Notes under the pieces: generated by a model
What the model saw: only the letters and a program-made list of their open reading frames with translations
Databases searched by the model: none
What the model was told of the DNA's origin: nothing
In this document: piece by piece, positions 15,519 to 41,981 of the stretch
Layout of the letters: every line of letters starts with the position of its first letter
Numbering within the stretch: the stretch's first letter is position 1
Program-made: the position numbers and the translations under genes
Assembly: GCA_002049455.2 (NCBI GenBank)
Contig: KV918794.1
Coordinates: 248,001 to 312,000 of the forward strand
Reading direction: 5' to 3'
From: Porphyra umbilicalis
Lineage: Eukaryota; Rhodophyta; Bangiophyceae; Bangiales; Bangiaceae
Length of the DNA stretch: 64,000 nucleotides

Positions 15519-15544
15519 GACTGGCGTAGGGTTGCTCAGAACGC

Positions 15545-15620
15545 CCGGGGCGTCGTTAAGGGCGTCGTTAAGGGCGTCACTAGGGCGTCATTTGGGCGTC
15601 GTGCGCCCCTAACGCCCCAA
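15545..15620. repeat. Subterminal GGCGTC repeat array, left end
   Basis: At least six copies of GGCGTC, plus inverted GACGCC/AACGCC forms, occur within about 75 bp. A matching cluster sits at the right end (about 19705-19790). Known transposases of TIR elements often bind such clusters; here this is inference. Confidence 0.75.
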
Positions 15621-15717
15621 CTCAAAAGGGCGTCAGCAAGGCGTCGCGAAGAGAAAGTGTTCAGGGGTGCTGAGAACGAGCCGTGAACCCGAGGAGGACC
15701 AACCAGAGGTGGACCTG

Positions 15718-18551
15718 ATGAACGGCGACAAGAAGTACGTTGGCAGTGCGGCGGGTGGCGAGAGAACTGCTGATGCGATAATGCACCTGAAGCTGTCTCC
15801 GTACCACTGGGCTGTCCCTGGATCCACCTCGGGAGGCAAGGCTAACTGTGTTTTGCTCTGGACTGTTTGATTTCCAACCGTACAATCGTCTGTTGAGTGA
15901 TACAGATTGACGGCAGCCGACTTGCGGCGGGTGTTTCCCGGCAGGGTGTGGGCGTACGAGTGCTCGACGTGCCACCACCTCTTCCTGAAGCCACAGCAGG
16001 CATGGCGGCCTGGAGAGAGGGTGTGGCGCGCAAGGCGGACGACGACCTGGCGCGAGCCGTCGCGGCGTTGCCCGAATCCCAGTGCCGCAGGGGCACCTGC
16101 AACACCTGCTCTTGCCAGGGGCAACGATCCAAGGGGCGCTCATCAGCCAAGCAAGCTGCCTTGACGCGCCCCCCTCCCCCTGTAGCAGCGTGCGCCGCTC
16201 CTGAATTTTGCTCGAACGTATCCCCCTCACAGGTGCTGGAGCCAACGCAGCCTGTTGCCCCCCCTCCTACGTTGCCGCCACCTCAGGCAATCGCCTATCA
16301 AAACGCCTGTCCGAAGCCTGCGCGCCGGCCGCCAGCCCACCTGCCTGATTCTCCTGTACAAGCTGCCCACAACCCCCCCGGTATCCCCATTGAGCATCCG
16401 ACTGTCATGCCAAGCCCCCACCCCCTCACGCCCCATCACCCGGCTGCTCAGACCTGCAAGCAGTTCTTGGAGGCGCTGCTGGCTGGGCAATTCACCGGGG
16501 CAGAGGACCAGGCGTACTTGGGGAGGATTGCAAGCGCCGTCCTGCTCCATGGCACGCCTAACGTGCTGAAATTAACGCGTGGCAATGGCACCATTGCCGT
16601 CTACACGCGGAGGGTGACGCCCCGTCTGGTGCGTGTCAAGAAGAGCCAGACGAACAAACGACTGGCGGCTGCGCGAAAGGAGCTGCGGGCGGCATGCTCA
16701 GGCGCTGCTCTCGCGCGAGCGCCCCCTGACGAGGAGGTGGAGGGCGTGGCCGAGGCACCGCCGCGGGGCGCGCCGTCCGCGGAGGAGCAAGTGGGGCTAC
16801 TGGAGGTTGCAAGGCTGAGCCAGCAAGGGTTTGCTCTAATCCGGCGGATTTTTCGGGGGGCTCGCCTTGGCATGGCCAGCGTTGCCGAGCTGCGCGGGGC
16901 TCGCAAGAGGATGCAGGCGCTGCCGGTGAAGAAGGTCACAATCAACACTGCTGGTGCCTACATCACAAACCTCTCCTTGGCGGTGCAGGAGCGCGTTTCG
17001 TCGCTCTGTGGAGCCGAACAATTCATTGAGCGGCACATCTTCGACGACAATGGCAGGCCCGTGCCCAAGACTACCCTCTTTACAGACGCCGACTCGAGCA
17101 ACTTGGGCGTGCTGTCCGGCTGCCCCCCGCCTGAGATGAAGGACGTCCACCTTACTTTAGGTTTGGACAAGGGCGGCAGCCCGCCGTTGGTCAAAGTTGT
17201 CGTCGGGCTCATTAATCAGGAGCGCCCGAACGACCCCAACAACACAATTCTCGCTGCTGTTTGTCCATGCGACAAGGACAACTACGACGACATTGACTCG
17301 ATGCTCAAAACGCTGGTCCCGCAAGTCACAGAGCTGCTAGTGGGCGGTCTGCTGGTCGGAGGGGAGAGACGCGCCGTGCGATTGTTCCCCACGGGCGACT
17401 ATGATGCCCTGTGTACCGTGCTCGGGCACAAGGGTGCGAGCGCGACCATGCCGTGTCTCAAGTGCCTCAGCACTCGAGCACCCAGCGTCGAGCACGCCAC
17501 ATTGGACGCCCAGTACCTGACGCTCCAAGACGTCGTCGGCGAGAGGACCCTGCGGTTGGCGACGCAGTACTGCAACGTGGAATGGCCGGGCCAAGGCAGC
17601 GGAGGCCGTTGTACCGGCGGCGACACTGCCTCTGAACGCCAATTGGCTCATCTGTCCGTCCAGCGGCGACCTCTCCTGCCTGCTGATCAGCGGCAGATCG
17701 TTGTAATTCCATTGCACATTACCCTCGGTGTGACCGGACGATTACTCGTACTCGCCACCGAATGCGTAATTAAGTGCAACGGAGACGAGGCCGGGCTGCG
17801 CTTCGCGCACCGCTTGGCGGCGTTGCTACGGAACAACGTGGGCGTGAAGCCAGTTCCCTATCACGGGGGGGGGTTCATCGGCCGCGACTGCCACCGCATT
17901 GGTGACAGGAGTGATGCCATCTCCCAGCTGCTGTTACCCGACCTGACGGAAGAGTACCACACAGCTTACAAGCACGCGTGGCTGCTCTGGAACCGGGTGC
18001 GAAAGTCATTGAACCGGGCTGCCGTTGCGACTGCCGAGGAGGTCCGCCAGTTCCGAGCAGACACCACAGCTTTTGTCACGCACCTGAAGCGGGCGTTCCC
18101 GTGGCTGAGCGTTTCACCGAAGCTTCACCTGCTGCTTTGCCACGCTGCCGAATTCATGCAGCGCTATGGGAGCATCGGCTTGTATGGGGAGCAGGCTATC
18201 GAAGCATGGCACGGGCGCTACGGTCAGAGCGCGCGCAAGTATTGCTTTAGCTCTGAGCTGGCGTCGGCGGCGGCCTTTATGCGCGCAATGGCGCTGGCGC
18301 GGGACGCCAGTGAGTCGGACCTGGCGCGGTACGGGCCGACGCGCAAGTCGGCGGCGCGTGCAGCGCGCAATGCTACGAGCGCGGGCGACAAGCGGAGGCG
18401 GGAGAACCGGGAAGTAGTACCGGTTAGTGCATCCAAAGAAGACAAGGCTAAGAGGGACCGTGAGAAGTGGGCGGATGATTTGCATGCGAAGGTAGCTGAC
18501 ACCATGCGTGCACAAGTGCGGAGAGAAAACAAGAGAGCACGGAAAAGGTAA
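15718..18551 (+). CDS. Putative DDE-type transposase, unplaced family (copy A)
   Basis: Exon 1 is probably ATG 15718 to 15734, followed by a 171-nt intron (GTACGT donor at 15735, CAG acceptor ending 15905), giving MNGDKK-LTAADLRRVFPGRVWAY then a CSTC finger. One frame change at about 16000 separates this finger from the long frame that runs to the stop at 18549-18551; the same regions are continuous in the homologous copy at 37871-40958, so this copy has one frameshift. Landmarks in the long frame: GLDKGG (D at 17166-17168), GDYDALC (D at 17397-17399), GHKGAS..PCLKC, PYHGGGFIGRDCHRI, PKLHLLLCH and GLYGEQAIEAWHG (E at 18189-18191 or 18201-18203). I infer a DDE RNase H fold from the D, D, E landmarks and from the element structure. 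The C-terminus is basic. About 900 residues; nuclear; would mobilise the surrounding element. Confidence 0.8.
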
Positions 18552-19704
18552 AGGGCTGAGGAGTTGAGCTACACGCGCGAACAACTGGTGACACACAACC
18601 AGCCTGACGTGTATGGGAGGTCAAACAAAAAAAATTCAATCGAAATGTCGGGCGGGTGGTGCAGCAGCTGGTGGAAGACGATGGGGCAGTGGCAGGAAAG
18701 TGAGTCGCGAGCGCATCCGACCGATAAGACCCACCGCACACTCCACGAGCCGCGTCTCACACTCACTTGCGTCTTGCCGAGCGCCACCTCCCCACAGATG
18801 GGCCGCCAACCCACTTGCACACACACACAGTTCCCACAGGAAGCAGCATTTACCATCGCATAAGACACACAGAGGAGCGGGCGTGCCGCCAACCACCACC
18901 CACCGCCGACGCACACATACCCTCCACACTCCACGTGCCGTTGTCAACCGCCGCGCGTGCACCCCGACGAGGAAGAGAAAAAAGAGAGGAACGGATGGAG
19001 TTGCCCGGTCCAGCCGGCGCACGACGACATCGAGCCAGAGCCTGGGGTGGGAGAGAGAAAAGAGATAGAACCAATGCTGACCAGGAGAACAAGCATCAAG
19101 GAGGCAACAGGTCCAATCAATACAGGTGGCACGGCATCCGGGGGCGGGCGGGGCGTGGGGGAGGAGGCAACATGCAAAGAGTCAATGGCGAGGATGTGGT
19201 GTGAGAAACCGAGAAGTGCTCAATCATCGTCGAGAGGGTACGCCAGCTCGCCAGACAACGAAGCAGCTCGGGGCGGATGCTCAGACAATAGGCGGGCAAC
19301 GCACTTGGGTGGCCGTCTGCCGCAGTGCGCAACAGGAGGTGGCCGCGATGGCGTGCACACCATGTTGAAGCAATGGAGACCATGGGCGCGCGGGCGACGT
19401 AAACTCAAGTGTGCTCACGGCGCCTCGGTAAGCAGCGAGCAATCGCCTCGTGCGTTGTGAGTCGAACGGTTGCAGCTGTGTCCCACCCAGCTGGGGCCGT
19501 CGCGTCGTGCACACTGGCCGTGTCCTGGAAAAAGCGCGCAAACGGGCGGCCACGTTGTTTTCGCCGCCAGATCTGGCTCATATTCAACATCAAACTGACA
19601 GCACAAAAGAGAGCCAATAGATGGCGAGAATTGTGCTTCTATACCAATGGCTGGCCAGATTTGCACTAAGAGCCGCTCCACAGTGTATTAACTCGGCGTG
19701 TCGT

Positions 19705-19790
19705 GAGGGCGTTTTGGCTGCCTAATGGGGCGTCAGTAAGGCGTCTTATCCGTCGCGCGCCCCTGACGCCCCCGAAATAGGGGCGTCGTG
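19705..19790. repeat. Subterminal GGCGTC repeat array, right end
   Basis: Several GGCGTC and GACGCC words mirror the left-end cluster of the same element, just inside the terminal GCAACCCTA. Confidence 0.7.
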
Positions 19791-19843
19791 TGCAACCCTA
19801 GACTGGCGGACGGCACCAAGCGCCGCCGCACTTGACGCACGAG

Positions 19844-21663
19844 TAGGGTTGTGCAACACGCCCAAGGCGTGTTCACAGACACGCCCAGGGCGTGCTTTAT
19901 CGCATGTTTAGGGCGCGTCACGCCAGCACGCCTACCCAAACATGGGGCGTGTTTTAGGCGTGTTTAATTACAGGTTCATGTGCACTTATTAGGTTGGTTG
20001 CAGTGAGGTGGTCGTGTAAGGATTGCAACCGACTCGACCCCCACCGATTGACCGACATAAGAGCATTGCCAACAACTCAGGCTATCGCTATCGGCTATTC
20101 CATTCTAGAACCAAGTCCGCGTCCTTAGACAGCCACATGTACGTCAGCGGTTGGCTGCTGTGCTGTCATGAGCCTCATTACCCGCAGGTTTCCTTACACC
20201 AGGCCTTGTCTGGGCCCGATCAAGACGATATTTTCTGCCAGGACTTGATTCACTGCAGCGGCAGATGACAACTGTGGTGAGCAGCCGTATCAACCATAAC
20301 GAAGGCGCAAAGAACGCTCGTCGGCAGACGGACAAAGAAACAGGTCAAAATGTGCAGCGCTTGATGACGACCACGCCTAGAATGACGTTACTGTAGGACC
20401 ATTGCCATGCACGACAGCTCTTGCGGACGTTCCCACCACCTCTGCCCAGAAGAAACTGGCAGTCAATCTTGCAGACGTGGCGCACACGTTGCAGCCACGT
20501 GCTACTATTTGCTGTGAAACGGGTCGTTGATCCATCACAAGGGCCAATCAGAGGCCCCCGTGAGATTGCCTCGGCTATCCTAAAAGCTATTCCGACTCGA
20601 AATAGAAAAGCGATAGCCGCACAGCTATTCTTGGTCAGCGGAAGCCAGAATCAAGTAGGTACAGTCTTTCTCCAATGCTGTCCACCCTCTATGGCGATCG
20701 TATGACCAGAAAGTAGCCCGTACTTTTCGTGCAGAAGACGAGGATCGGGAGCCACGATCGCCGTTGATTGTACCGTAGAGACCGGTCGACCGCGTTCGTT
20801 GCTATCCCCCCCTGGACAAGAAAGGAAGCGACAAGAATGGAGAAAGACTGTAGTTCGATATCCATGGCCCGAACAAAAAAAGAGCTTCTTCGTCTAAAAA
20901 GTGGTGTTACGTCGGTCTTCAGGTGCTTAATGGGACACGTTGTGCAACGTGGCTTGAATATGGGGATAGCATCTCATTGTTAACAATGCTCCAACCAAGG
21001 TGGTGCTGCAAATGCGAGCTGCGCTTGCCAAAGAGGCGGCGCCGCGCCAGACGGTGTCACCGGGGTCCCGCATGGGCGATTTTGGTCAAGATGCCGGCGG
21101 AATGGTAGACCCCATGATGACTACGAGGACGAGTGGAGCCCCCCCCCCGCTGCCGACAACGAGAACGACGCTGACGTGGGTGCGGTCGCAGGCCTGGCAT
21201 CCGACGCCAGAAGCATACCGCAAGAGTTGGACGAGGTGTCCCAGGCATGCCGCGAGCGGGGAGAGGCGACAGCGAACGACGAAGCGTTGGAAGTCAACGG
21301 CGCCAGCCAGCCGCCTCGCCTCCGAGAGTCTGATCTTGTGAGCATTTGCGAGGCTTACGTGGCGCGGAGGGTCGGCACGGAGGGTGTCGCTGCTGCGGTG
21401 GGTGGGGCGTCGAGCGCGGCAGGCAGCGGCCGCGGTCCTCGTCAGACCAACGTGCTGCTCAAGGATGTGTTTGACACGACGTGGTAAGATTGTGTATCGT
21501 ATGGAGCGGTTTAGGCAGAGCATTGGTAGGTGCTACTTGGAGTTTTTATGGGTGTTACTTTAGGGCGTGTCGGGCGTGTTTAGTGATTAAGGGCGTGTTT
21601 AGGGCGTGTCTTAACGTGTCACGACCGCACGCCCTTCAAAAAGGGGCGTGTTGCACAACCCTA
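19844..21663. mobile_element. 1.82-kb non-autonomous DNA transposon with 8-bp target duplication
   Basis: Both ends read TAGGGTTGTGCAACACGCCC (19844-19863 and inverted at 21644-21663), a perfect 20-bp terminal inverted repeat. The element is flanked by the exact 8-bp direct repeat CGCACGAG (19836-19843 and 21664-21671). Subterminal arrays of GGCGTGT occur at both ends (about 19865-19970 and 21555-21650), parallel to the GGCGTC arrays of the neighbouring element at 15527-19800, whose ends also start TAGGGTTG. The interior is lower in GC than the host and has no frame with transposase motifs; a 103-codon open stretch near 21176-21487 has no ATG start or known domain. Most likely a non-autonomous relative moved by a transposase in trans. 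Confidence 0.93.
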
Positions 21664-21748
21664 CGCACGAGACACGGCAGACCCACCGACGAGGCACGAC
21701 GTGAGGCACTCTGCCCGAGCAGGGAGGCGCGGGGCGCCCCGCCCCCCC

Positions 21749-23107
21749 TCATGCTTTCTTGTCCTCCTCCCCATCCTTCTCCCCCTCTGGAAACAACAAG
21801 CTGGCGGCCACGCCGCCCCCCACGCACACGGTAATGACGCCGAGCGACGGCAGGATGCCGACCTCGTAACCGGCCACCCCCGCCATCATCTTGAGGCCGA
21901 CAAAGGCGAGGACGACCGCCAGGGCCGGCTGCAAAAACCGCAAATCTCCGATCGCTTCGGAGATGACAAAAAACAAACTCCGCAACCCGAGCACCGCCAT
22001 AATGTTGCTCGCGTAAATGACAAACGTGTGGGAGGAGATGCCGAGCACCGCCGGCACCGAGTCGAGCGCAAAGACGACGTCGGAAAACTCGACCGACAGC
22101 AGCACCAGCATCAGCGGGGTGGCCAACCGCGGGCCGTCGCCGCCAGGGCCCCCAGCGCCGCTCGTGAAAAACCGGTCCCCGTCATACGCGTCGCTAAACG
22201 GCAGCAGCCGCCGCGCAAAGCGCACGGTCGCGTTGTTGGCGACGTCCTCATCGTCGCCGCCCGCCCCCGGGATGAGCATCTTGGCGGCAGACACGAGGAG
22301 GATGCCCCCAAACACCAGCGACACCCACCGAAAGCGGCGGGTCAGGGCCTCACCCGCGACAATCATGACGCCGCGGAGGGACATGGCGCCAATGATGCCC
22401 CACTTGAGCACCCGCGCTTGCAGCCGCCGCGGCACGTGAAAGTGCTGGAAGAGGAGGAGGAAGACAAGCAGGTTGTCGACCGACAGGGAGTACTCGACCA
22501 CGTAGGCAGCGACAAACTCCAAGCCCCGCTCCGCGCCGAGCGTCGCCGCCACCCCCGCCGCCACAACGCCGGCGGCGGCCACCCAGCAGAGCGTGTACAG
22601 GATGTCGTCCCGCACGGCGGTGGGGTCGACGCCAGAACTCGCGCTCGACGCCGCGGCGGCGGTCGTCGGCGCCGTCGACCCGTCGGCCGATGGGGTGCTG
22701 ACGAGCACCGACACCTCGGCCGCGCCGGTGCCGCTGCCACCGCCATTGGCGGTGTTGCCGCCGCCGGCGCCGACGCTCGTGCTCCTCCTGCTGCCCTTGG
22801 GCGTGGCGGTCGGTGTGGCGCCTTTGGGCACCCCGTTGGTCGCGCCGCCGTCGCCACCCTCCAGTACCAACACCGCGTCTCCTCTGCCGGGCGCTGGCAC
22901 CACCACGGCGACGGGCGACAGGGCATTGTCCACGCCGCCGCCGCCGCCGTCGCCGCCCCTGCCGCCGGCCAGTAGCAGCGGGGCCCCCGCTCCGCCCTTT
23001 GGATTGGGCACACCCCCGGCGGCGGCGTCGGGGGCGGGGGTGGGGGGGAGCTTGACGGCCACCGCCCCCGGGGGCGGGGCCTCTGCTTCGACGGTGGCCT
23101 CGGCCAT
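21749..23107 (-). CDS. TerC-family integral membrane protein
   Basis: TerC proteins are polytopic membrane proteins; plant and algal members are known in thylakoid biogenesis and bacterial ones in metal export. The ATG at 23107 lies in a good initiation context (ACCATGG) and gives 452 residues. Residues 1-150 are low-complexity (Gly, Ala, Pro, Thr). The TerC domain follows: VEYSLSVDNLLVFLLLFQHF, WGIIGAMSLRGVMI, FGGILLVSAAKML, then after a loop ALDSVPAVLGIS, FVIYASNIMAVLGLRSLFF and a final hydrophobic helix before an acidic/lysine tail. These include the family's conserved acidic residues in membrane segments (SVDN, ALDS). No clear plastid transit peptide is visible, so an upstream exon or another start is possible; the frame is open further upstream without an ATG. 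Its stop lies only about 80 bp from the end of the 19844-21663 transposon. Confidence 0.9.
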   Translation of the reverse strand: MAEATVEAEAPPPGAVAVKLPPTPAPDAAAGGVPNPKGGAGAPLLLAGGRGGDGGGGGVDNALSPVAVVVPAPGRGDAVLVLEGGDGGATNGVPKGATPTATPKGSRRSTSVGAGGGNTANGGGSGTGAAEVSVLVSTPSADGSTAPTTAAAASSASSGVDPTAVRDDILYTLCWVAAAGVVAAGVAATLGAERGLEFVAAYVVEYSLSVDNLLVFLLLFQHFHVPRRLQARVLKWGIIGAMSLRGVMIVAGEALTRRFRWVSLVFGGILLVSAAKMLIPGAGGDDEDVANNATVRFARRLLPFSDAYDGDRFFTSGAGGPGGDGPRLATPLMLVLLSVEFSDVVFALDSVPAVLGISSHTFVIYASNIMAVLGLRSLFFVISEAIGDLRFLQPALAVVLAFVGLKMMAGVAGYEVGILPSLGVITVCVGGGVAASLLFPEGEKDGEEDKKA

Positions 23108-24453
23108 GGTTGCCCCGGACGGGGCGCGGGCGCCTCTCGGCAACACGAAGCAAGAGGAAGCGGAATCGCCAGCGGGAGGTGCGGTTAGCAGCAGCGAGAA
23201 GAAGAGTGTGGATGGCGCGGGAGGAACGGAGGCTGCGTCCAAGGCGAACGCACTTGCAGGGGGCTGGGAAGAAAAAATAAAAGAATGAGGAGAGCGCAAA
23301 GGCCACAGAAGCCTCAATGTGTGTGGTTGCGGCGGAGTCGGGTGGCCAGTTGCACAAGCTCCAACCGCTCCACGGTCGCCGCGGGGGGGGAAGCGAGACG
23401 TCGGGAGGGCACACTGGCAGACGCCACCGTCCGGCCACGACGCGGTGGAGCAGCCACAAGAAGGCGAGCAGGTTACGAGGGATGGAACCAGTGGCGGTGG
23501 TGGCGGCACGAGCCCACCAGCTGCATCCACCCAGCAGCCGGCCGGGCGGGTCGGGCGGGGCGGGGGGCGACGGGCGGAAGGAGATGAACGCAGCGGGCGT
23601 GCGGCCGACTCGTGCGGCGAAGGCACGCGTTGCACGCTCCTCCCCCCACCCGCCAATCCAGCGTGTGGTGGCAGCCCATGCGCGAGGCCGCCGAATTGGG
23701 GCGCCTGAAATAATTCCGCAGGGGTCGATGCGCGATGCGGGGTGGCCGGCAACGCCGCGTGCGCCCCGCGCGTGCGGGCCCCCGCGTGACGCGGATGTCA
23801 GGCCAACGGCCGACTGCCGACGAGGCTGTGCGGGCGGACGGGGGCGCACGCTGGCATTGACGTTTGCCGGGTGGCGAGCTCTTTTACTGGAGGAAACACG
23901 ACCAGCCCGTGCCCTCTCGACCGGTCCGACCACCGCGTTGGTGGTTCCGCCGCCCCTGGTGGCAGCGACGACGAAAGGGTGGGCGGGGCGCCGCGCCACC
24001 ACCACGGCCCCGGCCGACCCGGCCAGCGGAGCTTCCGTGGCAGTGGCTACCGCGTCGCGCGCGAGCTCGTCGTTCAACCCTGCTGCGGTCGCGCATGGTC
24101 CGCCACCCCCGTGGAGCCTTCGGAGAGCACCGCTGACGAGGCGCAGGTCTGCCCGCAAGCCGCCGCGCAGCGCTTTGACCCGACCGCCACCAGAGCATTC
24201 CCACTCAAGCCGTACTCCCCCCCTCCGCCTGCGGCTGCATTGGTAGCGCATGGATGCTCAGCTTGCGTTGCACACCGAGAGGGCCAACATGCTGTGTCGT
24301 GGGTACCAATAAAGGGGGTACGGGGGAGGGGGGCGGGCGGGACGACGAGCGTGAACGACAGTGGTGGCGACGGTAGTCCAGATGACGGTGGGTGGCCCCG
24401 ACACTGGTTTTCGTTTGCTGCTTAACCAGCGATCAGACGGCGGCGATGCCTTA
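23108..24453. other. Intergenic region upstream of TerC
   Basis: GC-rich sequence with long open stretches in several frames but no recognisable domain. It should include the TerC promoter and leader. Composition falls sharply after about 24290 on approach to the TA-flanked element. Confidence 0.4.
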
Positions 24454-25389: not shown

Positions 25390-25972
25390 TACCGTCAACG
25401 ATTACTAAATCATGATGGTGTCAGGGAACCAATGTCATACATAAGAGCCTGATTGCCAATCAGTGATTGGCACCACCTTCACTTGTAGCTGGAGCACCCT
25501 GTTATGTAAGTGGGTGGAATTTAAGAGGACAACCAGTGTACTGTCTACTTCCGCCATGCCCCTCTCTCGATTGGAGCCGATCCGAGGCCTCGGCGTGTCC
25601 CAAATAGTTGGGTTTGGGTCGTATCGAGCACAACTGCACCAGATTGTTTCGCGCTCGGTGCTCAGGCCTCGCGGTGCCTCGAGGACGAGCGCCGCGACGT
25701 GGTCATCGCCCAGAGCCGCTCCGCACTTGATCCTCTTGCTTGATTTTTTGTGCCCCCTGTCGGCGGCGCGCCGCCGACGAGAGCATTACCGCAGCCCGCT
25801 GGTGGTTGCCCTCGACGTGTTTCGCCGGCTTTGCCGCGATCATCGCGCGTGGCGTGCGTCGTCCAGGCGCTGGTGTGGGGCGGGCGTCTGGTGCGTCGGC
25901 TTTCTCCCCGCCGCCCCACTCCCGTCTCGCGCCGACCCCCTATTCGACCGTGTCTCCCTCCCCCTCTCCTCC
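25390..25972. other. Upstream region of the SWIB gene
   Basis: The first half is AT-richer (25390-25660); the second half returns to host GC. The reading frame of the SWIB gene stays open upstream to 25463 but there is no conserved protein sequence before the ATG at 25973, so I treat this as promoter and 5' leader. Confidence 0.4.
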
Positions 25973-26899
25973 ATGATGGCAGCGGCCTTTACTGGCGCCT
26001 GCGCGCCTGTGCTGGGGCAGGCGTTGGCGCCATGGCGGCTGGCGGTGAGCCGCTCACTGCGCGCCACCTCCAGCTCTTTTGTTGCCGCCAGGCCGCCGCC
26101 GATGGCGGCGCTCGTCGCGTCGCGGCGGGGAGCGATGGCGGCGCCCGCAGGCCGCTCCGCGGGCGCCCGTAGAGTGTGGTCCATGGCCGTCGTGGCGGAC
26201 GCTGAACCAGTGGCGCCGCGGCGCCTCAAGGGCGTCCACAAGCCCGTTGCCGTGACCGGGCCGCTTTTGGAATTTGCTGGTGTTCCCATCTCTACCCGCC
26301 CTGAGCTCATTCGCGCCATCTCTGCGTACGTCAAGAAAGCCAATCTGCAGCTAGCGGAGGATAAGCGGTACTTCAAGGTGGACCCCAAACTCCGCAAGAT
26401 CCTCGGTGTGGACGCGTGCGCCTTCCTGTCGATCAGCAAGTACCTGACGCCGCACCTGAAGAAGCCAGAGGACGTGAGCCCGGCTCTGGCAAAGCAGGCG
26501 TCTGAGATGGTGGACGCTGCCAACGCGGCGGCGGACAAGTTTGAAGCTGAGACGCCGTATGACGACGACGAGGTCACCGGGAAGAAGTCCTACAAGCGGA
26601 AGGCTAAGAAGAACTCCAACAAGGCCCTCGGGCCGGCGCGAGCCAAGGAGGAGGGCACGGGCATCTTCAGGCCCCTGAAGCTGAGCAAGACCCTCTCCAA
26701 GGTATGCGGCGCGGAGACCTTGAGCCGCCCGGAGGCGGTCAAGGCCATGTGGCGGTACATCAAGCTCAACAAGTTGCAGTCGCCAGGGGATGGCCGCGTT
26801 ATCATCTGCGACTCGCTGCTGAAGGAGCTGTTTGGGTGCGACAAGACCGATGCGTTTGCCATGAACAAGCTGCTCACGCCCCACCTGTCCAAGATGTGA
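25973..26899 (+). CDS. Two-SWIB/MDM2-domain protein, probably organelle-targeted
   Basis: From the ATG pair at 25973 the protein has 308 residues. Residues 1-70 are rich in Ala, Arg and Ser with few acidic residues, a typical plastid or mitochondrial presequence. SWIB domain 1 spans about residues 88-165 (FAGVPISTRPELIRAI ... SISKYLTPHLKK). A lysine-rich acidic/basic linker follows, and SWIB domain 2 runs from about 230 to the end (LSRPEAVKAMWRYI ... MNKLLTPHLSKM). SWIB/MDM2 domains are small helical protein-interaction modules found in chromatin remodellers, in topoisomerase fusions of Chlamydiae, and as small plastid-nucleoid proteins in plants. The duplicated domain and presequence favour an organelle-nucleoid or DNA-associated role; that is inference. 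The gene shows no intron. Confidence 0.9.
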   Translation: MMAAAFTGACAPVLGQALAPWRLAVSRSLRATSSSFVAARPPPMAALVASRRGAMAAPAGRSAGARRVWSMAVVADAEPVAPRRLKGVHKPVAVTGPLLEFAGVPISTRPELIRAISAYVKKANLQLAEDKRYFKVDPKLRKILGVDACAFLSISKYLTPHLKKPEDVSPALAKQASEMVDAANAAADKFEAETPYDDDEVTGKKSYKRKAKKNSNKALGPARAKEEGTGIFRPLKLSKTLSKVCGAETLSRPEAVKAMWRYIKLNKLQSPGDGRVIICDSLLKELFGCDKTDAFAMNKLLTPHLSKM

Positions 26900-30291: not shown

Positions 30292-31782
30292 ATGCAGACG
30301 ACCGGCCGTCTCCTTTTGGCCCGATCCGGCGGCGTCCGCTCCCTACCGGGCGCCTCGCTGGCAGCGGCGGTCGTCGCGCCTGCGGCACCCGCCGCCGCGG
30401 CGGCTGGCGGCCCGGCCGCCGCCGCCCGGTGGGTGGCGACAACGTCCCCCGCCCTGGCGGTCCCCCCGCCAGTGGTGCCGACGCCCGTGGCGCCTGCCGC
30501 CGCCGCCGCCGCGGGCGTGGCCGTTGGCGCGGCGGCGACCGCCGCCGGCGCCGCGTCTGCCGCCGCAACGACGGCGGCACGGGAGGCGGCGGCTGTGGCA
30601 GCGTCGCAGAGGCAGGGGGAGAGCGGAAAGAGTGGGGGGGCGGGGGGGGGTTCCGGCGAGGGTGGCGACGTGCCGCCCGGGGGGGAGGGCGGGGGCGCGG
30701 GGGGGACGGGTCCGTCGTCGAGGGGAAAGGGCGTACGTTTTTTTGGGGTTTTGTTGCGCCGTCGGCCAAGTATCAGTGCGACTGGGGGGGGGGCGGAGAG
30801 TTGCTGCTGCCGCCTCGAGGGGTGTCTGAGGGTGCGCGCCAGCGGTCGTCTCACAGCTGGCGTCCAGGTGCGTTCCACCTCGGCAGACTCGGTTGCGGGG
30901 TGGCAGTCTGCCCGTGCCGGCCAAGTTTAACTGACGCCAACAAGCTGCTTGATTGTCCTTGCCTTGGCTGTGCGGGTGCCCGGTCCCCTTTCACTCCCCT
31001 ATCTGCCCACGCAGCCGCTGTCCTGGCCCGGCCTCGCCGCCGCGCTCGCCGTCGGCACCGGCCTCCTCTACTACTACTCGGTGGAGAAGCGGGCCAAACT
31101 CACCCGCCTCGCCGCCCCCTCAACGACCGGCAAGGCGACCCTCGGGGGCCCGTTTACCCTCACCTCGGCGGCGGGCACGCCCGTCGACTCATCGTCGCTC
31201 CACGACGGCGCCTTTATGCTCCTCTACTTTGGCTTCACAGAGTGCCCCGACGTGTGCCCCGAGGAGATGACCAAAATCAGCACCGCCCTCGTGTCGCTCG
31301 CGCAGCGGGGCGTGCCGGTCGGCGCCCCGGCGGGCACCGCGGCGGCGGCGGCGGCGGCGGCGGCGGGCGCGGCCAAAGTCGGCGTCAACCCCGTCTTTGT
31401 GACCATTGACGCGGAGCGGGACTCGCCCGCCCGCACAGACGAGTATGCCAAAGCGTTTCACCCGGGGTGGGTCGGCCTCGGCGGGTCGGTCGACGAGACG
31501 ACGGCCGCCGCCAAGGCGTACCGCGTGTACTTTGCCAAGGGGGAAATCGAGGCGGACGGGGGGTACAACGTCGACCACTCGATCATTACGTACCTCGTCA
31601 ACCCAAAGGGGGAGTTTGAAGAGTTTTACGGCAAGAACGTCGGCGCGGCCGAGATGGCCGCCCGCATTGACGCGGCGCTCGGGCGGTGGCGCGCGCGGCC
31701 GGCGGGCGGGGCGCAGCCGCCGCCGGGCGCCGCGGGGGGGGCGGTGCGTCCGGCAGCGTCGGCGGCCACGCCCGCCGCCTAG
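30292..31782 (+). CDS. SCO1: SCO1/SenC-family mitochondrial copper chaperone
   Basis: SCO1 delivers copper to the CuA site of cytochrome c oxidase subunit II in the mitochondrial inner membrane. Exon 1 is ATG 30292 to 30732, encoding a mitochondrial presequence and a low-complexity Ala/Gly linker ending SSRGKG. A 282-nt phase-0 intron (GTACGT donor at 30733, CAG acceptor ending 31014) precedes exon 2 (31015-31782). The join gives GKG-PLSWPGL, matching the SCO family's GKGPVSW start. A membrane helix (LAAALAVGTGLLYYY) follows, then a thioredoxin-like domain with GGPFTLT, YFGFTECPDVCPEE (copper-binding Cys at about residues 224 and 228) and the distal histidine in YNVDHS. An alanine tract interrupts the domain before VGVNPVFVTID. 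Total about 402 residues, longer than usual because of the linkers. Confidence 0.95.
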
Positions 31783-35051: not shown

Positions 35052-36262
35052 ATGGCAGCGTCGGCGCACCCCCCCCCGCCGCCAGGCTACCGCCTGGGCG
35101 CGGGCGTGCGGGTGACGCTCGGCGGCGGCGGCGGCGGCGGTGGCGGCCTGCCGTCGACTGTCGAGGGCGCCGTCGCCGCGTATGACGCGGCGTGCGACGT
35201 GCTCGCACTGCGGCTGCCGGGGGGGGGCTCCGCCTGATCCCGGGCCGCCTGATTGGGGGGGTCGTTGCCGCTCCGGCGGCGGCCGGCAGCCCGCCGGCGG
35301 CGGCGGCGGCAGCGGCGGTGGCGAGCGCGGGGGGTGTGCCCGCGGCGACGCGGGAGAAGCTGGCGGCCGCTGCGCGGCGGGTGGGGGAGGTGGTTGGCCG
35401 TGAGCGCGCGCGGGTGGGGGTGGGTGTCGGCGCAGACGGCCAGGCCGTGTTTGATGCGCTTGCCAAGACGTACGTTTTGTTGGTGAGGAGCTTGCATGGG
35501 GTTGCGCGGGACAGGGGCAGTGTTGCTGTGGGGGGCCGGGGGGGCAAGCGACGGCTGGCATGCGCCGCGAGGAGCTGCTGCGGCGATTTGGGAAGGTGGG
35601 AGCGCGATTGCGTGCGGTTGCATGCATGGACACGGGCGGTGGTTGTTGTGCACGCCTGCGGCCGGCAATTGTGGTGGTGGCTGTTGTCCGTCACCCGCTG
35701 TGGCAACAGCTTTGCGCTCCTGCGGGCGACATGTCCGTCTCATACGGGGGGTGCCAGTTGGGGATATGTGCGCCGTTCGTGGACGATGCATGGAGAAGCT
35801 AACCTGCCCCGTGCGCTCGTTTGGTTTTGATGTGTTTCGTTTTGGTGTCAAGCTGCTCTTCGTTATGGTATCTGTGTCCACGTACTTTTTCTTGGACTCC
35901 GTATTGTTGCTGCCCGTCTTCACGCTGCCTTCCCCGTTTTGCGCCCGAACAGTCTGCCCGTCTCGTGGCAGGGCACGACCATTACAATCCTGGACACCCT
36001 CCACCTACCGCCGCCCTACACCCCCGCTGCGCTGCGGCCCGTGTCGGCGGGCGGGGCGGTGGACGAACTTGCCCGCGTGCGGATGGTCTTGACGAACGAG
36101 CGGGCCAAGCTGGACCTACCGGCCGCCCCGGCTGCCGCACCGTCGGTGGCGACGGTGGCGGCACCGTTGGCCGTCACGCCGGTGACGGGTGCGGGGCCGA
36201 CCGCCGCCGTCGCGCCGGCGGTGAGGGGGGCGTGGCGCTCGAGGGGGCAGCCTCGAGTGTAA
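35052..36262 (+). CDS. LSM12: LSM12 homologue (LSm domain plus anticodon-binding AD domain)
   Basis: LSM12 is a two-domain RNA-associated protein, an ataxin-2 partner in animals and yeast. The ATG at 35052 opens MAASAHPPPPPGYRLGAGVRVTL, then STVEGAVAAYDAACDVLALRL, the LSm fold. The frame must change by one base in the G9 run at about 35219-35227 to continue into LRLIPGRLIGGVV. The AD region follows (AATREKLAAAARRVGEVVG ... GADGQAVFDALAKT). A 483-nt intron (GTACGT donor at 35470, ACAG acceptor ending 35952) splices AKT-LPVSWQGTTITILD, and exon 2 ends at 36260-36262. The AKTxxxxWxGxxIxIxD join matches LSM12 well, so the splice is firm. The one-base discrepancy in the G run looks like a run-length error. 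Confidence 0.85.
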
Positions 36263-37362
36263 GGCGGGTGGTTTGCGGTGGGGCAGAGGGGCGAGGAGCG
36301 GCGGGACAGGGGGGGTGTGGGGGGCGGAGGCTGGAGCGGTGGAGCGTGTCCTGCGATGGCGCCGCTGCTGGTGCGGCGGTCAGGTGCTCGCGTGGGCGGG
36401 TGGTGCCCGGGGGTGCCGCCGACGCCAGGTGGCGGCCGCCGATGGGGCGGGTGGGGTGGACGGGCGGCGGCCGCGTGGCGGGTGCGGCTGTCGGTGGGCT
36501 GGTGGACGGCGACGGCGCGACCGGACCAACGCCGGTAGAGCGACTAAGCGGCGGGGCGACTGTAGGCGAGCAAGACGGGGCGGCCTCACCACCTCGGCCG
36601 CAGCAGGAGTGGACGTACTCTCTGAGACGCGGTTGGGACGGGGGAGTTGAAGGGGAGAGGGGGCAACGAGGACAGGGGGGTGGTTCCATCGTCGACGCAT
36701 GTGGCCGCCTACGGTGGTGACGGCGGTTGGAGGCGCTTGCACTTACTTTTGTGTGCCGTGTGGAGTTGTGCAGAGGGTTTGCGGTGTCGAGGGGTGCGGC
36801 AAGAAGTGTCGAGCTCTGCCGCGACGCAGAGACGATGTGAAGGATAGTTGCTTCTGGGTGTCGGTGGTGGAGGTGGAAAGGGTAAACGGGGTGGTCGATC
36901 CGATAAACGTCAACAGCATCGGGCGCAATGGTCGAGTGCCGCGCACCACGCTGCATCGGGAGTGCACGGCGGGACCGGCGCATCATGCCGTTCGCTCCGT
37001 GCGTAGTGGGCCGCGTGCGTCGACGGTCTCTGTTCTGGTGATGCCCGCTTCATCAGCGAGTCCCACTTTTCGCGTCGCCGCGACGCGGCACTTTCGGCTC
37101 GCGTCGGCCCTACCTCCCCAAACCGCATCGCCGCCGTGTCTCCGGGGGGGGAAAGCGAAGAACGATCCCGTGGCGTGTCGCCGTCGCGGCGCCATTGTTC
37201 CTCAACCAAAGTACAGACCCGATGACAAACAAAAACAAAGAAGAATGCTGTCTGACTGTTTCTGCACAAAACAACTCCATGACGGTGCGGCCCGTGGTCT
37301 GTGATTTAACAACGGCCCCCACCTCCGTTGCACTCGCCCGCCGCAGCCGCCGACTCGCCCTC
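36263..37362. other. Intergenic region between LSM12 and the SDR pseudogene
   Basis: The first 300 bp are very G-rich; from about 36700 composition is more balanced. A plus-strand open stretch at 36699-37304 includes FCVPCGVV and CGVEGCGKKC, but I recognise no family and no good start. No gene is supported. Confidence 0.35.
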
Positions 37363-37527
37363 TTACACCGGGTAGACCACCCCCGTGACCTCCTCACTCT
37401 TGGCCCACAAAGCCGCCGCCGCCTCATCTGACACCACCAGCCCCGTGCGCGCCGACGAGCGCGTCGGGGGCCCCTTGGCATGGAAGAAGGATGGCTCCCA
37501 ATAGTCGTTGGCGGCTACCCCCGCCTC

Positions 37528-40500
37528 ACGCCTAGTTAAGACCCCCCTGAGCGGCTCTTTTGGATTTTGGACATCCTCATTGGGTCTCCCACACAATTAG
37601 GGCTTTCCATTGGCTGATGTCATCTCTGTCGGCTGATGTCAGATGCAGTGCACTTTCTTCCGTGAATATGCACTTCTCTTGCGCCGAAAGGTCCTCAGAA
37701 CCAATGAGCGCGCGATACGAGCTCGCAGCACTTTCACAGGATGGAATCCATTTCAACGTTGTCTTGATCTCAGGGCCGAGCTCTGCTCCATCCAGCCAAG
37801 CGCGTGGAAGTGCCCGATGCTCACAGCCCCCGAACAGCCAAACTGCAAACAGACCGCCATGGGCGGAAAATCACGATTTCTTAGAGAAAGCTACAATCAC
37901 CTGGTTGGCCTCATCAAACTGGTCGGTCGCCCACTTGGCCCGGTCCGCGGCCCTCTTCTCCAAAGTCGCCAGACACTCACGCCGCCAGGGCTTATTGCGT
38001 CGCAGCCGCCGGTCCCCTGGCCCAACGGCTTTGCGGGGCCCATGGCGCCGCTTGCGAATCGGCGCCTTCGCCCGCCTTAGAGCATCCGAGGCTAAACCGC
38101 TCAAAGCCATGGTCTGCACCAGCTTGCGACAGGAAAGTAAAGGCGTCTCCGCCGTAAACCGCGCCGCGTTCTGGTTGTAAAACCCATGCCAGGACTCGAT
38201 GGCCTGTTCTCCATACAGACCAGTGCTGCCCCACAGCCCCATGAACTCCCACGTATGAGAAAAGAGCACGTGGAGCTTGGGCGAAATGCTCAACCAAGGA
38301 AATGTTCCTTGGAGGAGTCTGACAAACGCCCGGGCGTCAATCTTGAACTGCCTCTGCTCAGCCGGGGGGATAATCGTTGCTCGATTGAGCGTGGACATGA
38401 GCCCCCGGAATAGCGTCCACGCCCGCTCGTAAGCGGCGAGCCACGTAGCTGGCAGGAGAGGCCGCAGAGCTCGCACGACTGCGTCGCTCCTTGACGCAAT
38501 GGCGTGGCAGTGCCGACCAATGAAGTTGCCTCCATGATATGGCACTGGCTCCACGCCAATCTCCACGCTCAACACAGCCGCCAGTGTGTGCGAAAACTGC
38601 CGTCCTGCTGCCACGCCTCGCGCTTGCGTGACAGCCTCAATAGCTAGTCGTAGCATCCGCAGCGTCAGCCCAATCAGCAAGTGCAGTGGAAGGGGCACGA
38701 TTTGGGAGGGTGGCACAATAATAACCGGCGTCCGCTCGATGGACAAATGGGTGTCCAGCCCAAGTCCTCCCGGAGTCTGCCCAGACGACTGGTACGCAGT
38801 ACGCATTTCCCTTAGATGGGCGGCCGTCCTCGGTGGGTGCGCTGCAGTCAAGTCTTGGATGGTCCCAAAAGCAGCCACCAGCACGCATCGGCGGTCACTG
38901 GAGCACTTAGTGCCCAAGCAAAAGGGGCATGGTAGCGATGAACTATGCCCCTTGTGGCCTGTCGTGTTACAAACAGCGGGGTAGTCACTGTTCACAAACA
39001 CGCGCATTGCCCGCCGATGGGGCCCAACCACCACCCCAGCCAGAGCCATTCGACGTAACTGCGCCTCATGTGGGGCTAGTATAGCCGCCACCTCGGGGTA
39101 CTTGTCCTTAGACTCAGGGCATACTGCCATGAGAAGGGTATTCCCCAGTCTGTTTGGACTGTCTTGGTTCAAAAACCCCATGACAACCTTCACAGAAGTT
39201 GGGTCACCTCCTCGGTCCAGGCCAACAGAGATATGGACATCTCGCATGTCGGCGGGAGGGCAGAAATCGTGGTACGTAGGTGTCCCATCTAAGGGAGCCT
39301 CGTAATCACGAGTCTGGGGGACGGGCACGCCCTGCGGATCAAACGACGGCCGTTCAATGAACAAGCCGGCGGACCACAGCTGGGCTAGCCGGCCTTCCAC
39401 TGCCCGCGAGAGGTGGGCCAGATGGGCGCCAGTGTCCAGTAAGGAAACCTCATTAGCGGGCAGTGCCGTCAAGGCGGCTCGCGCCGCCCGCAAGACAGGC
39501 AGACTAGCCATTGGGCTATGCACCCCACCAAAGAACAACCGTATTCGGTTGAACTTGATGTCGCTGAGTCCAATGGAAGCCAGCAGCCCGACTTGCTCAG
39601 CGGCAGTCGGGCGCGGTGGGAGTCTTTTGGTGCCCCGTTGCCCTGCGGCGCCACTCTGGGAACGCGCACCTGCCGCCAAGCGCTTATTGGTTTGGCTTCT
39701 GCCCACTTGCTGTTTGAGCACAGTGGGACGGCGAGTGTAAACGCTGACACGCCCATTAGGGTGTGACACCGACACGCTAGGTGGGCACGTCCTGCTAAGG
39801 ATAGCTGCCACAACCCGTTGAGGGGCCAGAGACCCAACCTCCGCCGGCGTCCGTGCCTCCCCCAGCCTCGTCAGAAACTGCTGCACCAAATCATCCGCAG
39901 AGAGGCGAGGGGATTGAGGGGAGATGGACGCCGCGCCGGATGGCGACGGCACAGCCGGGCTAGCTGCCGAGGTGTAGGTACCGTCAACCGGCGAGGCACA
40001 AACCGAACCGCCCAACTTCGCTTCGTCGCCTGTCTGGGCGGTCGGTAGCCGGTCGCAGCGGTGAGAGGGTGGCGAGAGGGATTGAAAAGCAGGTGACGAT
40101 GCGCTCTCCACTAAGCCCTCCCCAGAACAAGGCACAAGCGGCGCATGGGCGGCGCCGACAGAGCCAGTCCGGTCATCCGTCGCCTGTGACGGCAGCGAGT
40201 GGCCGCGACGGTGGGGGGGGGAGGGCGTATCACACATCTCGGCGGCTGGCATGGCCCGTGGCGCTGCCCCCGCAGGAGCCAACTCCACGCCACCTGACTG
40301 GCCGGACACCCCGGCACCGCCGCCACCCTGAAGCCTGACCGGCTGTGAGGGGTTAGGCTGACAGGAACCAGCAGCGGCGGCGGCCGCCAAGCCCGCCGCA
40401 AAACAGGGCGCGGGCGGCGCATCAGCTCCGCTGACAGAGCCACTGTTGTCAGCCGTCATGGATGCCGGCACCAAGCGGTGTCGCCGCTGCCGCGCATAGC

Positions 40501-41301
40501 ACGGGTCGCACAGGCGGTGCGGGACCCCGTGGGGGTCGGTGTAAGACCCCACCTTGCCCCGCCGAAACGGAAGACGTGCTGCTGCTCCAACCGCTGTAGC
40601 CGAATTGGCGCCGTCCTGGGTCAGCAGTGCGGCGTCGCGCCAGACCCGCGCTTGCTCTGTACGGTTGAGAAAAAATCCAGAACAAGTCGGACAGAAAAAC
40701 GCAAGCACTTTATCTGGAAAAGCAGCTGCCAGTTGGGCAGAGGAGAGCACACTGTGGCACGGAACAGCCAGAAATGAGCGGCGGGGGGGTGTTAGCTTCA
40801 ATGCCGCCTGCAGACGAAATGAGTATTGGTTGCATGGGGACTCTTGACACTTTCAGAGCCAGCTCCGAGCGGGGATCACAGCCGTGTGCGCAATGGATGG
40901 GTGACACCAGCTCCCGTCAAACGCCCCACGGAAAATTGAGAACGTACAGTGACAACATCGGGGACGCTGGTGAGCCTGTGCCACGGCGCAGCATGGCTGT
41001 ACAGGGCTGCTTCTCCGGCAGAGTCTTGTCTGACCCGGGGGCTCGGCCACTCAGTGTGAAGAGTGGAGTGGGGCAGGGGGGAGGGTGGGCAAGTGGTGGC
41101 ACAAGGGAAGAAGGGCCCCGCCGAAGGCAATCTTGCAGCAGGTCGACCTGCTGGCGAGCAAGACGCGGAGCCAATTTGCCTCTTCCATGTCGAGCCCGTG
41201 ACGGCCTCTCTCGCCCACACAAGATTCGTGGTGCTGTCGTCCAATTTGTGTAATGCGATTGTGGCTTTCAGATCCAAAAGAGCCACCTTAACTAGGCGAG
41301 G
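37528..41301 (-). mobile_element. 3.77-kb DNA transposon inserted in the SDR gene (same family as 15527-19800)
   Basis: The ends are inverted: GCCTAGTTAAG at 37530-37540 and its inverse at 41287-41297, with a second matching inner block GGCTCTTTTGGAT near both ends (about 37552 and 41270). The host word GAGGCG (gene sense) lies on both sides (37522-37527 and 41302-41307), and removing one copy plus the element restores the dehydrogenase reading (T-E-A-G-V). The duplication is six exact bases; eight bases would need two mismatches. The terminal sequence differs from the TAGGGTTG ends of the 15.5-kb element although the encoded proteins are homologous. One intact gene fills most of it (37871-40958). 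Confidence 0.88.
37871..40958 (-). CDS. Putative DDE-type transposase, unplaced family (copy B, looks intact)
   Basis: Exon 1 is probably ATG 40958 to 40948, then a 196-nt intron (GTACGT donor at 40947, CCACAG acceptor ending 40752), then exon 2 from 40751 to the stop at 37871, about 963 residues with no break. The intron has the same place and phase as in copy A, directly before the finger. Domain order: SSAQLAAAFPDKVLAFF then a CPTC finger and a second CDPC pair, a Pro/Ser-rich linker (about residues 100-330), RSQTNKRLAAG, MRDVHISVGLDRGG, SDYPAVC, GHKGHSSSLPCPFC, PYHGGNFIGRHCHAI, PKLHVLFSHTWEFM and GLYGEQAIESWHGFY, then a basic tail. Identity to copy A is patchy, highest around the D and E landmarks, so the copies are old relatives, yet this frame has stayed open. 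It may still be active or have moved recently. Confidence 0.85.
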
Positions 41302-41981
41302 CGCCTCGGTCGCGGCGTGCAACAGGCAGCATGCGCCGGCCTCCGCCGACCGGCTAAGGAAGGGCTTGAGGACGGCTATGAAAATCGACGTGGAAAGTTC
41401 GGGTGTGGCCTTGACCAACAGTGAGGTTGTGCACCACCCGGGCTGCGCCGCGACGTCCAAGACGGGGGAGCCAGCCGCGGCCAAGCGGCGCGCCAACTCC
41501 CGCGCAAAAAGTATGTTGGCCACCTTGGACCGCACGTCGGCGGCGGTTGGTGAGTACCCCTGCTCCATCGTCCAATCGACGAGGGACAGGTCGGCGCCAT
41601 GCCGCTGCGCGTCGGACAAAACGCTCACTACGCGAGCACCCGGCGTGGCCGTCAGCAGAGGCAACAGCAGGGCGTTGAAGATAAGCCCGTGGAGCTCCGT
41701 GTGGGCGGCGTTGAGCGCTGCCGCCCCGGCCTTGACCGACGTCAAATCCGACAAGCCGACCCGCCGGGGGTGACGTCGGTGCCCGCCAGAGCCACTTGGA
41801 TGCGAGTGACAGCATCGATGCCACGCTCCGCGTTGCGACAAGCAATTAGGACCGTGGCGCCGCGGCGGGCCAGGTGCTGCGCGCATTCAAAGCCAGTGCC
41901 CGAGTTGCCGCCCGTGACGAGAAAGGTTTTGCCAGATTGGGGCTCGAGGTCGGCCATGGTCCATGACGTCGACGGAGCCAT

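What the first reader, a model, noticed from the sequence alone, without database searches (positions are those of the whole stretch)
15519..41307. A DDE-type transposase family I cannot place, with two divergent coding copies
The proteins of the elements at 15527-19800 and 37528-41301 share a layout: CxxC finger, RSQTNKRLAA-like segment, GLD(K/R)GG, (G/S)DY..(L/V)C, GHKG.S..PC..C, PYHGGxFIGRxCHxI, PKLHxL..H, and GLYGEQAIExWHG. The D, D and E landmarks and the terminal structure suggest an RNase H-fold transposase. It lacks the sequence signatures I know for hAT, KDZ, MULE, CACTA, PIF, piggyBac or mariner. Short D-G-G and PCxxC patterns recall uncharacterised repeat proteins of invertebrates and fungi. 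TAG-starting ends and 8-bp duplications are hAT-like, so a deep branch near hAT is one option, a new superfamily another.
Basis: partly seen in the sequence, partly recalled or inferred. Interest (0 to 1): 0.85.

Follow-up and report, generated by a model that had tools for sequence, protein, structure and literature searches.

The report
Chapaev-type (RAG1-like) transposons, red alga
The two unplaced genes most likely encode transposases of Chapaev-type jumping genes, distant relatives of the enzyme that shuffles vertebrate antibody genes, present in many copies in what looks like a red seaweed genome; the kind is known, though the host looks unusual.

Summary
The two proteins and their shared motifs are real, and the family is large: 61 matching stretches and 639 terminal sequences in the source genome. 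The 8-bp duplication and TAG ends do not belong to it. They belong to a separate 382-bp element (two copies without transposase fetched, each with its own 8-bp duplication) in which one transposase element, E1, is nested, its left end lost. The family's own ends are CACGCC(T/C/G)AGTTAA with 4-bp duplications (15 of 22 end pairs; shuffled mean 1.1; none of 6 bp or more). Pfam DUF1280, published as the Chapaev transposase, is the only match (E<=0.1) in 7 of 7 further members. C(2)C, LH and H(4)H motifs are present, at RAG1 spacings where compared. A core profile hits only RAG1/RAG1L in the PDB (4 of 4, E 0.043-0.39). Foldseek hits at E<=0.001 are all RAG1, RAG1-like or Transib (23 of 23; 17 of 17) from low-confidence models; the best hAT hit listed is 0.19. 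Phycobilisome linkers and GC-rich DNA suggest a Bangiales host. Verdict: Chapaev (CMC/RAG-class) DNA transposons, a new lineage of a known superfamily; not hAT, not a new superfamily.

The parts
15519..15526 (.). left copy of the 8-bp duplication GACTGGCG made by the enclosing MITE, not by the transposase element
   Evidence: MITE copies without transposase
15527..15663 (+). left part of the enclosing 382-bp-type TAGGGTTG...CAACCCTA non-autonomous element (right boundary approximate)
   Evidence: 40 full or nearly full matches in the genome, the window's own included; complete copies without transposase L082 and L083
15664..19700 (+). E1: Chapaev-type element, left end deleted (homology to copy L038 starts at 15664; L038 continues about 290 bp further left to its TIR), right end intact
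15897..18551 (+). E1 transposase open frame, 884 codons plus stop (first ATG at 16002). D424, D501, C520/C523, L606-H607, H744/H749, E769 (E765 is the E of GEQ). The first N-terminal finger of other copies is not in frame
   Evidence: (DUF1280 E=1.1e-4, below its cut-off)
19687..19700 (-). E1 right terminal inverted repeat, CACGCCGAGTTAAT, starting at 19700 and reading leftwards
19701..19800 (+). right part of the enclosing MITE, ending CAACCCTA
19801..19808 (.). right copy of the 8-bp duplication of the enclosing MITE
37527..41300 (-). E2: full-length Chapaev-type element, 3,774 bp, same length as copy L010; ends CACGCCTAGTTAAG and CTCGCCTAGTTAAG
37871..40852 (-). E2 transposase open frame, 993 codons plus stop. 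D546, D623, C642/C645, L723-H724, H861/H866, E886 (E882 is the E of GEQ). No Met before residue 132, so the true start is unresolved (upstream exon or worn copy)
37527..37540 (+). E2 terminal inverted repeat CACGCCTAGTTAAG (3' end of the transposase gene)
41287..41300 (-). E2 terminal inverted repeat CTCGCCTAGTTAAG, 1 mismatch (5' end of the gene)
10099..10112 (-). isolated perfect copy of the E2-family end; no partner found within about 5 kb to its left

Best explanation
[quoted passage not shown] The transposase is inferred to recognise ends beginning CACGCC(T/C/G)AGTTAA, to cut just outside the CAC, and to insert the excised element at staggered positions 4 bp apart, giving the 4-bp duplication. 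It is inferred to mobilise related non-autonomous elements (0.8-1.5 kb) that carry the same ends. Shown here: ends, 4-bp duplications, an insertion with a paralogous empty counterpart, copy number, near-identical copies, motif spacing, DUF1280 match and RAG1-type fold match. Inferred: cleavage chemistry (RAG/Transib-like nicking and hairpin formation, recalled), zinc binding, trans-mobilisation and current activity. The 8-bp duplication around E1 belongs to a 382-bp-type MITE in which E1 sits.
For: Duplications: 15 of 22 end pairs have an exact 4-bp repeat; the longest repeat is 5 bp in one of them and none reaches 6. With partners shuffled, 4-bp matches average 1.1 and never exceed 7 in 10,000. 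Of 4 E1-family copies checked, C144 (GCGG) and C288 (AGTT) have 4 bp, C31 has a C run (up to 5 bp), and L038 has none. Nested copy L010: an E2-type element inserted into an E1-type copy with duplication GGTG; the window E1 shows the paralogous empty site. Ends: 639 with at most 1 mismatch against 25 for the reversed control. Four near-identical copies (99.1-99.5%) carry the CACGCC end at the same point in four different flanks. Family: DUF1280 is the only Pfam match at E<=0.1 in 7 of 7 further members, 1.7e-8 to 0.0089, 2 of 7 over cut-off; 25 genome matches, 24 marked over cut-off (two only with neighbours in the frame), 0 of 14 control genomes. Published: DUF1280 corresponds to Chapaev transposases and groups with RAG1 (PMC3985635, passages); Chapaev has 3-4-bp TSD, CAC..GTG ends, and C(2)C, LH, H(4)H motifs (PMC4079192, passages). 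Spacings match the RAG1 sequence printed: D to C 19, H to H 5, H to E 20. PDB profile search with A2: 4 of 4 hits RAG1 or RAG1L, E 0.043-0.39. Foldseek hits at E<=0.001 all RAG1, RAG1-like or Transib: 23 of 23 for E2, 17 of 17 for E1.
Against: Both structure models have low confidence (pLDDT 58.5 and 58.0, pTM 0.39 and 0.38), and alignments to RAG1/Transib are loose (query TM-score 0.19-0.36, rmsd 15-22 A). The PDB profile E-values are marginal; with the full-length alignment A1, RAG1L and RAG1 fall to 0.4 and 0.73 beside an unrelated hit at 0.89. DUF1280 matches only about 65 of 220 profile positions; 5 of the 7 members and E1 score below its cut-off. For E2 alone, three unrelated families score better than DUF1280 (0.017, 0.039, 0.089 against 0.29), none over its cut-off. 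E2 lacks an exact boundary duplication. 7 of 22 end pairs show no 4-bp repeat: four reuse an end that has the repeat in another row (one of these, L047, looks like a genuine element without it), the others are E2, L053 and L062. The L of the LH motif is S or V in 2 of 10 aligned members. No Chapaev reference sequences were available for a tree.
Confidence: 0.85

Rival explanations
1. A separate, unnamed lineage of the same wider CMCT/RAG class (sister to Chapaev or to Transib) rather than Chapaev itself.
For: Only about 65 positions of DUF1280 match; RAG1, RAG1-like and Transib are the structural hits, and no structure named Chapaev is among the rows shown. PMC12730594 (passages) says C(2)C and H(3-4)H are shared by the whole class.
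Against: 4-bp duplications, the LH motif, H(4)H and DUF1280 together are those listed for Chapaev. Transib's 5-bp duplication (recalled) is not the rule here, and Pfam shows no match to models of other CMC lineages for E1 or E2.
Confidence: 0.12
2. One reading: a deep hAT-like branch with TAG ends and 8-bp duplications.
For: 8-bp duplication GACTGGCG and TAGGGTTG ends do flank E1.
Against: Those ends belong to an enclosing MITE found without transposase. 0 of 22 family end pairs have 8-bp repeats. No hAT Pfam family is listed at E<=10. Hermes appears only at E 0.19 for E1 and not among the 50 best rows for E2.
Confidence: 0.01
3. A categorically new transposase superfamily.
For: PDB search with the E2 sequence alone found one unrelated hit at E 1.5, and the E2 Pfam match alone is not significant.
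Against: As for the best explanation: DUF1280, RAG1-class fold, motif spacing, ends and duplications.
Confidence: 0.01
4. Domesticated host genes that descend from a transposase rather than mobile elements.
For: Long intact frames in several copies.
Against: Dozens of copies, many with stops, matching ends, 4-bp duplications, a nested insertion and MITEs with the same ends.
Confidence: 0.01

Closest known systems
Chapaev DNA transposons (CMC; Pfam DUF1280, PF06918)
   Same: CAC..GTG ends, 4-bp duplications, DDE with C(2)C, LH and H(4)H, DUF1280 match
   Different: Host is a probable red alga, whereas the passages read place Chapaev/DUF1280 in animals; sequences are divergent, with only about 65 residues recognised by Pfam; open frames of the longer copies are 884-1,024 codons against 556 aa for the silkworm element in PMC4079192
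Transib / RAG1 (RAG-like transposases)
   Same: Only fold matches at E<=0.001; same D-to-C(2)C spacing (19), H(4)H and H-to-E spacing (20) as the RAG1 sequence
   Different: 4-bp rather than 5-bp duplication (5 bp recalled); a RAG2-like partner was not looked for
EnSpm/CACTA, Mirage, Plavaka, ESTA, Lanisha (rest of CMCT)
   Same: CA..TG ends in most cases and C(2)C..H(3-4)H motifs according to PMC12730594
   Different: the duplications quoted there for TET-bearing EnSpm, Plavaka and ESTA are 2-3 bp; no Pfam match to such models listed at E<=10 for E1 or E2
hAT (Hermes)
   Same: RNase H-fold transposase with a helical insertion (recalled)
   Different: 8-bp duplication and hAT domains not found for this family; fold match far weaker (E 0.19). 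The enclosing 382-bp MITE is hAT-like by ends and 8-bp duplication only

Membership tests
Chapaev | 3- to 4-bp target-site duplication | tested here: met
   15 of 22 end pairs have an exact 4-bp repeat (5 bp in one of them); shuffled mean 1.1; E1 family: 2 of 4 exactly 4 bp, 1 a C run of up to 5, 1 none
Chapaev | terminal inverted repeats with 5'-CAC...GTG-3' termini | tested here: met
   CACGCC(T/C/G)AGTTAA ends, 639 against 25 control; boundary fixed by four flanks. E2's 5' end reads CTC
Chapaev | DDE with C(2)C, LH and H(4)H motifs | tested here: met
   all three in E1 and E2 with spacings; C(2)C and the H of LH invariant in the 10 rows of A1, L of LH in 8 of 10, H(4)H in all but the truncated row
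Chapaev | sequence similarity to the Chapaev transposase family (DUF1280) | tested here: met
   only Pfam match at E<=0.1 in 7 of 7 members, 2 of 7 over cut-off; 24 of 25 genome matches marked over cut-off; E1 1.1e-4 and E2 0.29, both below cut-off
Chapaev | N-terminal Chapa zinc-binding domain (PMC4411706) | not tested
   paired cysteines are present near the N-terminus of most full-length rows, but no Chapa profile was available
Chapaev | groups with Chapaev in a transposase phylogeny | not testable with these tools
   no Repbase sequences on hand
RAG/Transib class fold | RAG1-type catalytic core | tested here: met
   23 of 23 and 17 of 17 Foldseek hits at E<=0.001, from low-confidence models
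Transib | 5-bp duplication (recalled) | tested here: not met
   1 of 22, in a C run
hAT | 8-bp duplication made by the element itself | tested here: not met
   0 of 22; the 8-bp repeat belongs to the enclosing MITE
hAT | hAT Pfam domains / Hermes fold | tested here: not met
   no hAT family listed at E<=10; Hermes E 0.19 against RAG1 2.1e-6
EnSpm/CACTA | CACTA-type ends, 2-3-bp duplication, Transposase_21 domain (partly recalled) | tested here: not met
   ends CACGCC; 4-bp duplication; no such Pfam match listed
KDZ (Zisupton) | 8-bp duplication (PMC12730594) | tested here: not met
   0 of 22

The most novel reading that the evidence does not exclude
These red-algal elements form a distinct deep lineage of RAG1-class transposases, outside the animal Chapaev clade, still recently mobile (copies about 99.4% identical). 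The RAG1/Transib/Chapaev class would then reach Archaeplastida, either by old descent or by transfer between kingdoms.
Probability: 0.3. Interest if true: 0.55.

Novelty: new member of a known kind. Interest (0 to 1): 0.38.

Why it matters
Chapaev transposases are relatives of RAG1, so each well-documented lineage outside animals bears on how old and how widespread the RAG-type catalytic core is. The passages I read place DUF1280/Chapaev in animals, and my searches of the held library gave no paper that I could see reporting it in red algae; most of the hits were seen as listings only. That library lacks most subscription journals and Repbase Reports, so this is not proof of absence. The case also shows how nested insertion can give a transposon false ends and a false duplication length.

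Tried and rejected
Taking 15527-19800 as the transposase element: rejected, because copy L038 is homologous only to 15664-19699, the family TIR sits at 19687-19700, and the outer ends occur alone as a 382-bp element. Automatic TIR plus duplication search on E2: no convincing result, because its duplication is degenerate.

Single-sequence PDB search with E2: one unrelated hit, E 1.5. NCBIfam: no match at E<=1 for E1 or E2. Scans of viral contigs and genome contigs: 15 and 18 pattern stretches, none confirmed as a relative. VIA-align library: not available. Papers PMC3093488 (Yuan and Wessler) and the P. umbilicalis genome paper are not held. The full-length profile A1 does worse than the catalytic-core profile A2 against the PDB. 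The literature search with Chapaev and five red-algal terms (any two) matched 1,662 papers; none of the 10 listed mentions Chapaev. Searches gave listings from which nothing was used. PMC5982333 mentions Chapaev only in its reference list; the one 'alga' passage of PMC12730594 was not clearly among those shown.

Full report
WHAT WAS CHECKED. The window lies in an unnamed 83.8-Mb genome. They align at 36% identity, and most of the listed motif residues are invariant or nearly so in a 10-sequence alignment from the same genome (A1). The family is large. A DNA pattern for the PYHGG-FIG segment has 48 exact matches with 0 in the reversed control. The E2 protein has 61 matching stretches, some of them pieces of one element; 46 of 7,549 first-look candidates were scored, so this is a lower bound.

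THE 8-BP DUPLICATION BELONGS TO SOMETHING ELSE. TAGGGTTG ends with the duplication GACTGGCG do flank E1 (15519-15526, 19801-19808). But the 96.6% identical copy L038 is homologous only from 15664 to 19699, and a family end, CACGCCGAGTTAAT, sits at 19687-19700. The outer left stretch 15527-15663 has 40 matches in the genome, the window's own included, with 40 of 296 candidates scored. Both are complete 382-bp TAGGGTTG...CAACCCTA elements without a transposase, and each has its own perfect 8-bp duplication (ATCCTGGC, TTGTACAG). E1 is therefore a transposon nested in such a MITE. Its left end is lost: L038 continues about 290 bp further left to a CACGCCCAGTGAAG end.

THE FAMILY'S OWN ENDS AND DUPLICATIONS. 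E2 runs from 37527 to 41300 with ends CACGCCTAGTTAAG and CTCGCCTAGTTAAG. Such ends occur 639 times with at most one mismatch, against 25 for the reversed control. Among the window and the loci then held (L001-L068), 22 distinct end pairs with at most 3 mismatches in the two ends together were found. 15 have an exact 4-bp direct repeat; the longest repeat is 5 bp in one of these (a C run), and none reaches 6. Shuffling the right flanks gives a mean of 1.1 four-bp matches and a maximum of 7 in 10,000. Of the 7 pairs without a 4-bp repeat, four reuse an end that has the repeat in another row (one of them, L047, aligns full-length with other elements and may be a real element without the repeat), and the others are E2 itself, L053 and L062. 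In the E1 family, of 4 copies checked, C144 (GCGG) and C288 (AGTT) have 4 bp, C31 has a C run of up to 5 bp, and L038 has none. One E2-type copy (L010, 96.9% identical) is inserted in an E1-type copy with duplication GGTG, and the window E1 shows the uninterrupted sequence as a paralogous empty site. Four copies at 99.1-99.5% identity carry the CACGCC end at the same point in four different flanks; L033's alignments with the other three start at 579-587, and the end starts at 587. This argues for recent movement. Elements of 0.8-1.5 kb with the same ends form their own groups, whose full-length pairs are 92.6-98.5% identical; they are probably mobilised in trans (inference).

WHAT THE PROTEIN IS. 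Pfam gives one relevant family, DUF1280: E1 at 1.1e-4 (22.3 bits, cut-off 25). For E2 alone it is weak (0.29), behind three unrelated families at 0.017-0.089, none over its cut-off. In 7 of 7 further members it is the only match at E<=0.1 (1.7e-8 to 0.0089), 2 of them over the cut-off. Searching the genome with DUF1280 gives 25 matches, 24 marked over the cut-off (two only with neighbours in the frame), and none in 14 control genomes. The match covers about 65 of 220 profile positions, around the first D. PMC3985635 (passages read) states that DUF1280 corresponds to putative Chapaev transposases present in animals and groups it with RAG1. PMC4079192 (passages read) gives the Chapaev hallmarks: 3-4-bp duplication, CAC/GTG termini, and C(2)C, LH and H(4)H motifs. 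All are present in E1 and E2 or their close family; in A1 the L of LH is S or V in 2 of 10 rows.

RAG1 KINSHIP. A profile of the catalytic core (A2, 12 sequences) finds 4 sequences in the PDB at E<=10, all RAG1 or RAG1L (0.043-0.39). The best alignment is collinear from before the second D, through C(2)C, LH and H(4)H, to the E. Spacings are identical in E1, E2 and the printed RAG1 sequence: D to first C 19, H to H 5, and H to E 20 if the E is the second one of GEQAIE. The single-sequence search (one unrelated hit, 1.5) and the full-length profile (RAG1L 0.4, RAG1 0.73, one unrelated 0.89) are weaker.

STRUCTURE. AlphaFold2 models of the E2 core (pLDDT 58.5, pTM 0.39) and the E1 core (58.0, 0.38) are of low confidence. 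Both show strands b1-b2-b3, a helix, then b4, with the first D at the end of b1 (core position 207 / 221) and the second just after b4 (284 / 298). Foldseek against the PDB gives 23 hits at E<=0.001 for E2 and 17 for E1. All are RAG1, BbRAGL (only) or HzTransib, over 470-679 columns. Hermes, the hAT transposase, first appears at E 0.19 for E1 and is not among the 50 rows listed for E2. Query TM-scores are low (0.19-0.36) and rmsd high (15-22 A), so this supports a class, not atomic detail, and I could not measure whether D, D and E meet.

HOST. The genome has 10 matches to the light-harvesting family and 12 to phycobilisome linkers, 4 on contig C665 and 8 on other contigs. This points to a red alga. 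The window's 4-kb segments have 61-75% GC. PMC7423979 (passages read) gives 64-68% GC for Bangiales genomes and 37-57% for other red algae. A Bangiales host is thus likely; Porphyra umbilicalis (66% GC there; about 88 Mb, recalled) fits but is not shown.

HOW IT MOST LIKELY WORKS. A RAG/Transib-like transposase pairs two CACGCC-starting ends, cuts outside the CAC, and joins the freed ends to a target with a 4-bp stagger. The ends and the duplication length are shown by the copies and the empty site; the cutting chemistry is inferred from the RAG/Transib class (recalled).

LITERATURE. Searches: Chapaev with Porphyra, 0 papers; with 'red alga', 2 papers, listing seen only, one Chapaev mention each; CMC-Chapaev with 'alga', 0; Chapaev with 'alga', 7 papers, listing seen, of which I opened passages of two. 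Nothing that I saw reports red-algal Chapaev. Repbase and most subscription journals are not covered.

VERDICT. Chapaev-type DNA transposons: a new lineage of a known kind, in a host not named in the passages read. The finding's hAT and new-superfamily options fall.

Noticed in passing
window 19844-21663: A second TAGGGTTG...CAACCCTA element, 1,820 bp, with a perfect 8-bp duplication CGCACGAG; its 167-aa open frame has no Pfam match at E<=0.001.
   Followed up: partly
G000:C98:88405-100802 (outside the window): Six hits to the transposase pattern at a spacing of about 2,479 bp, which suggests a tandem array of a unit that carries an E1-like transposase piece.
   Followed up: no
L010 (G000:C225:1759-7737): An E2-type element inserted into an E1-type element, with 4-bp duplication GGTG.
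   Followed up: yes
L033 position 509-587 (G000:C9) and L057 (G000:C10): Chapaev-type elements inserted in or next to copies of the 382-bp MITE, so insertion into or beside this MITE has happened more than once.
   Followed up: partly
window 10099-10112 (-): A perfect Chapaev-type end without a partner within about 5 kb to its left.
   Followed up: partly
window 21752-23797 (-), 25445-26896 (+), 30931-31779 (+): Host genes in single open frames between the two elements: TerC family, a protein with two SWIB stretches, and SCO1/SenC.
   Followed up: partly
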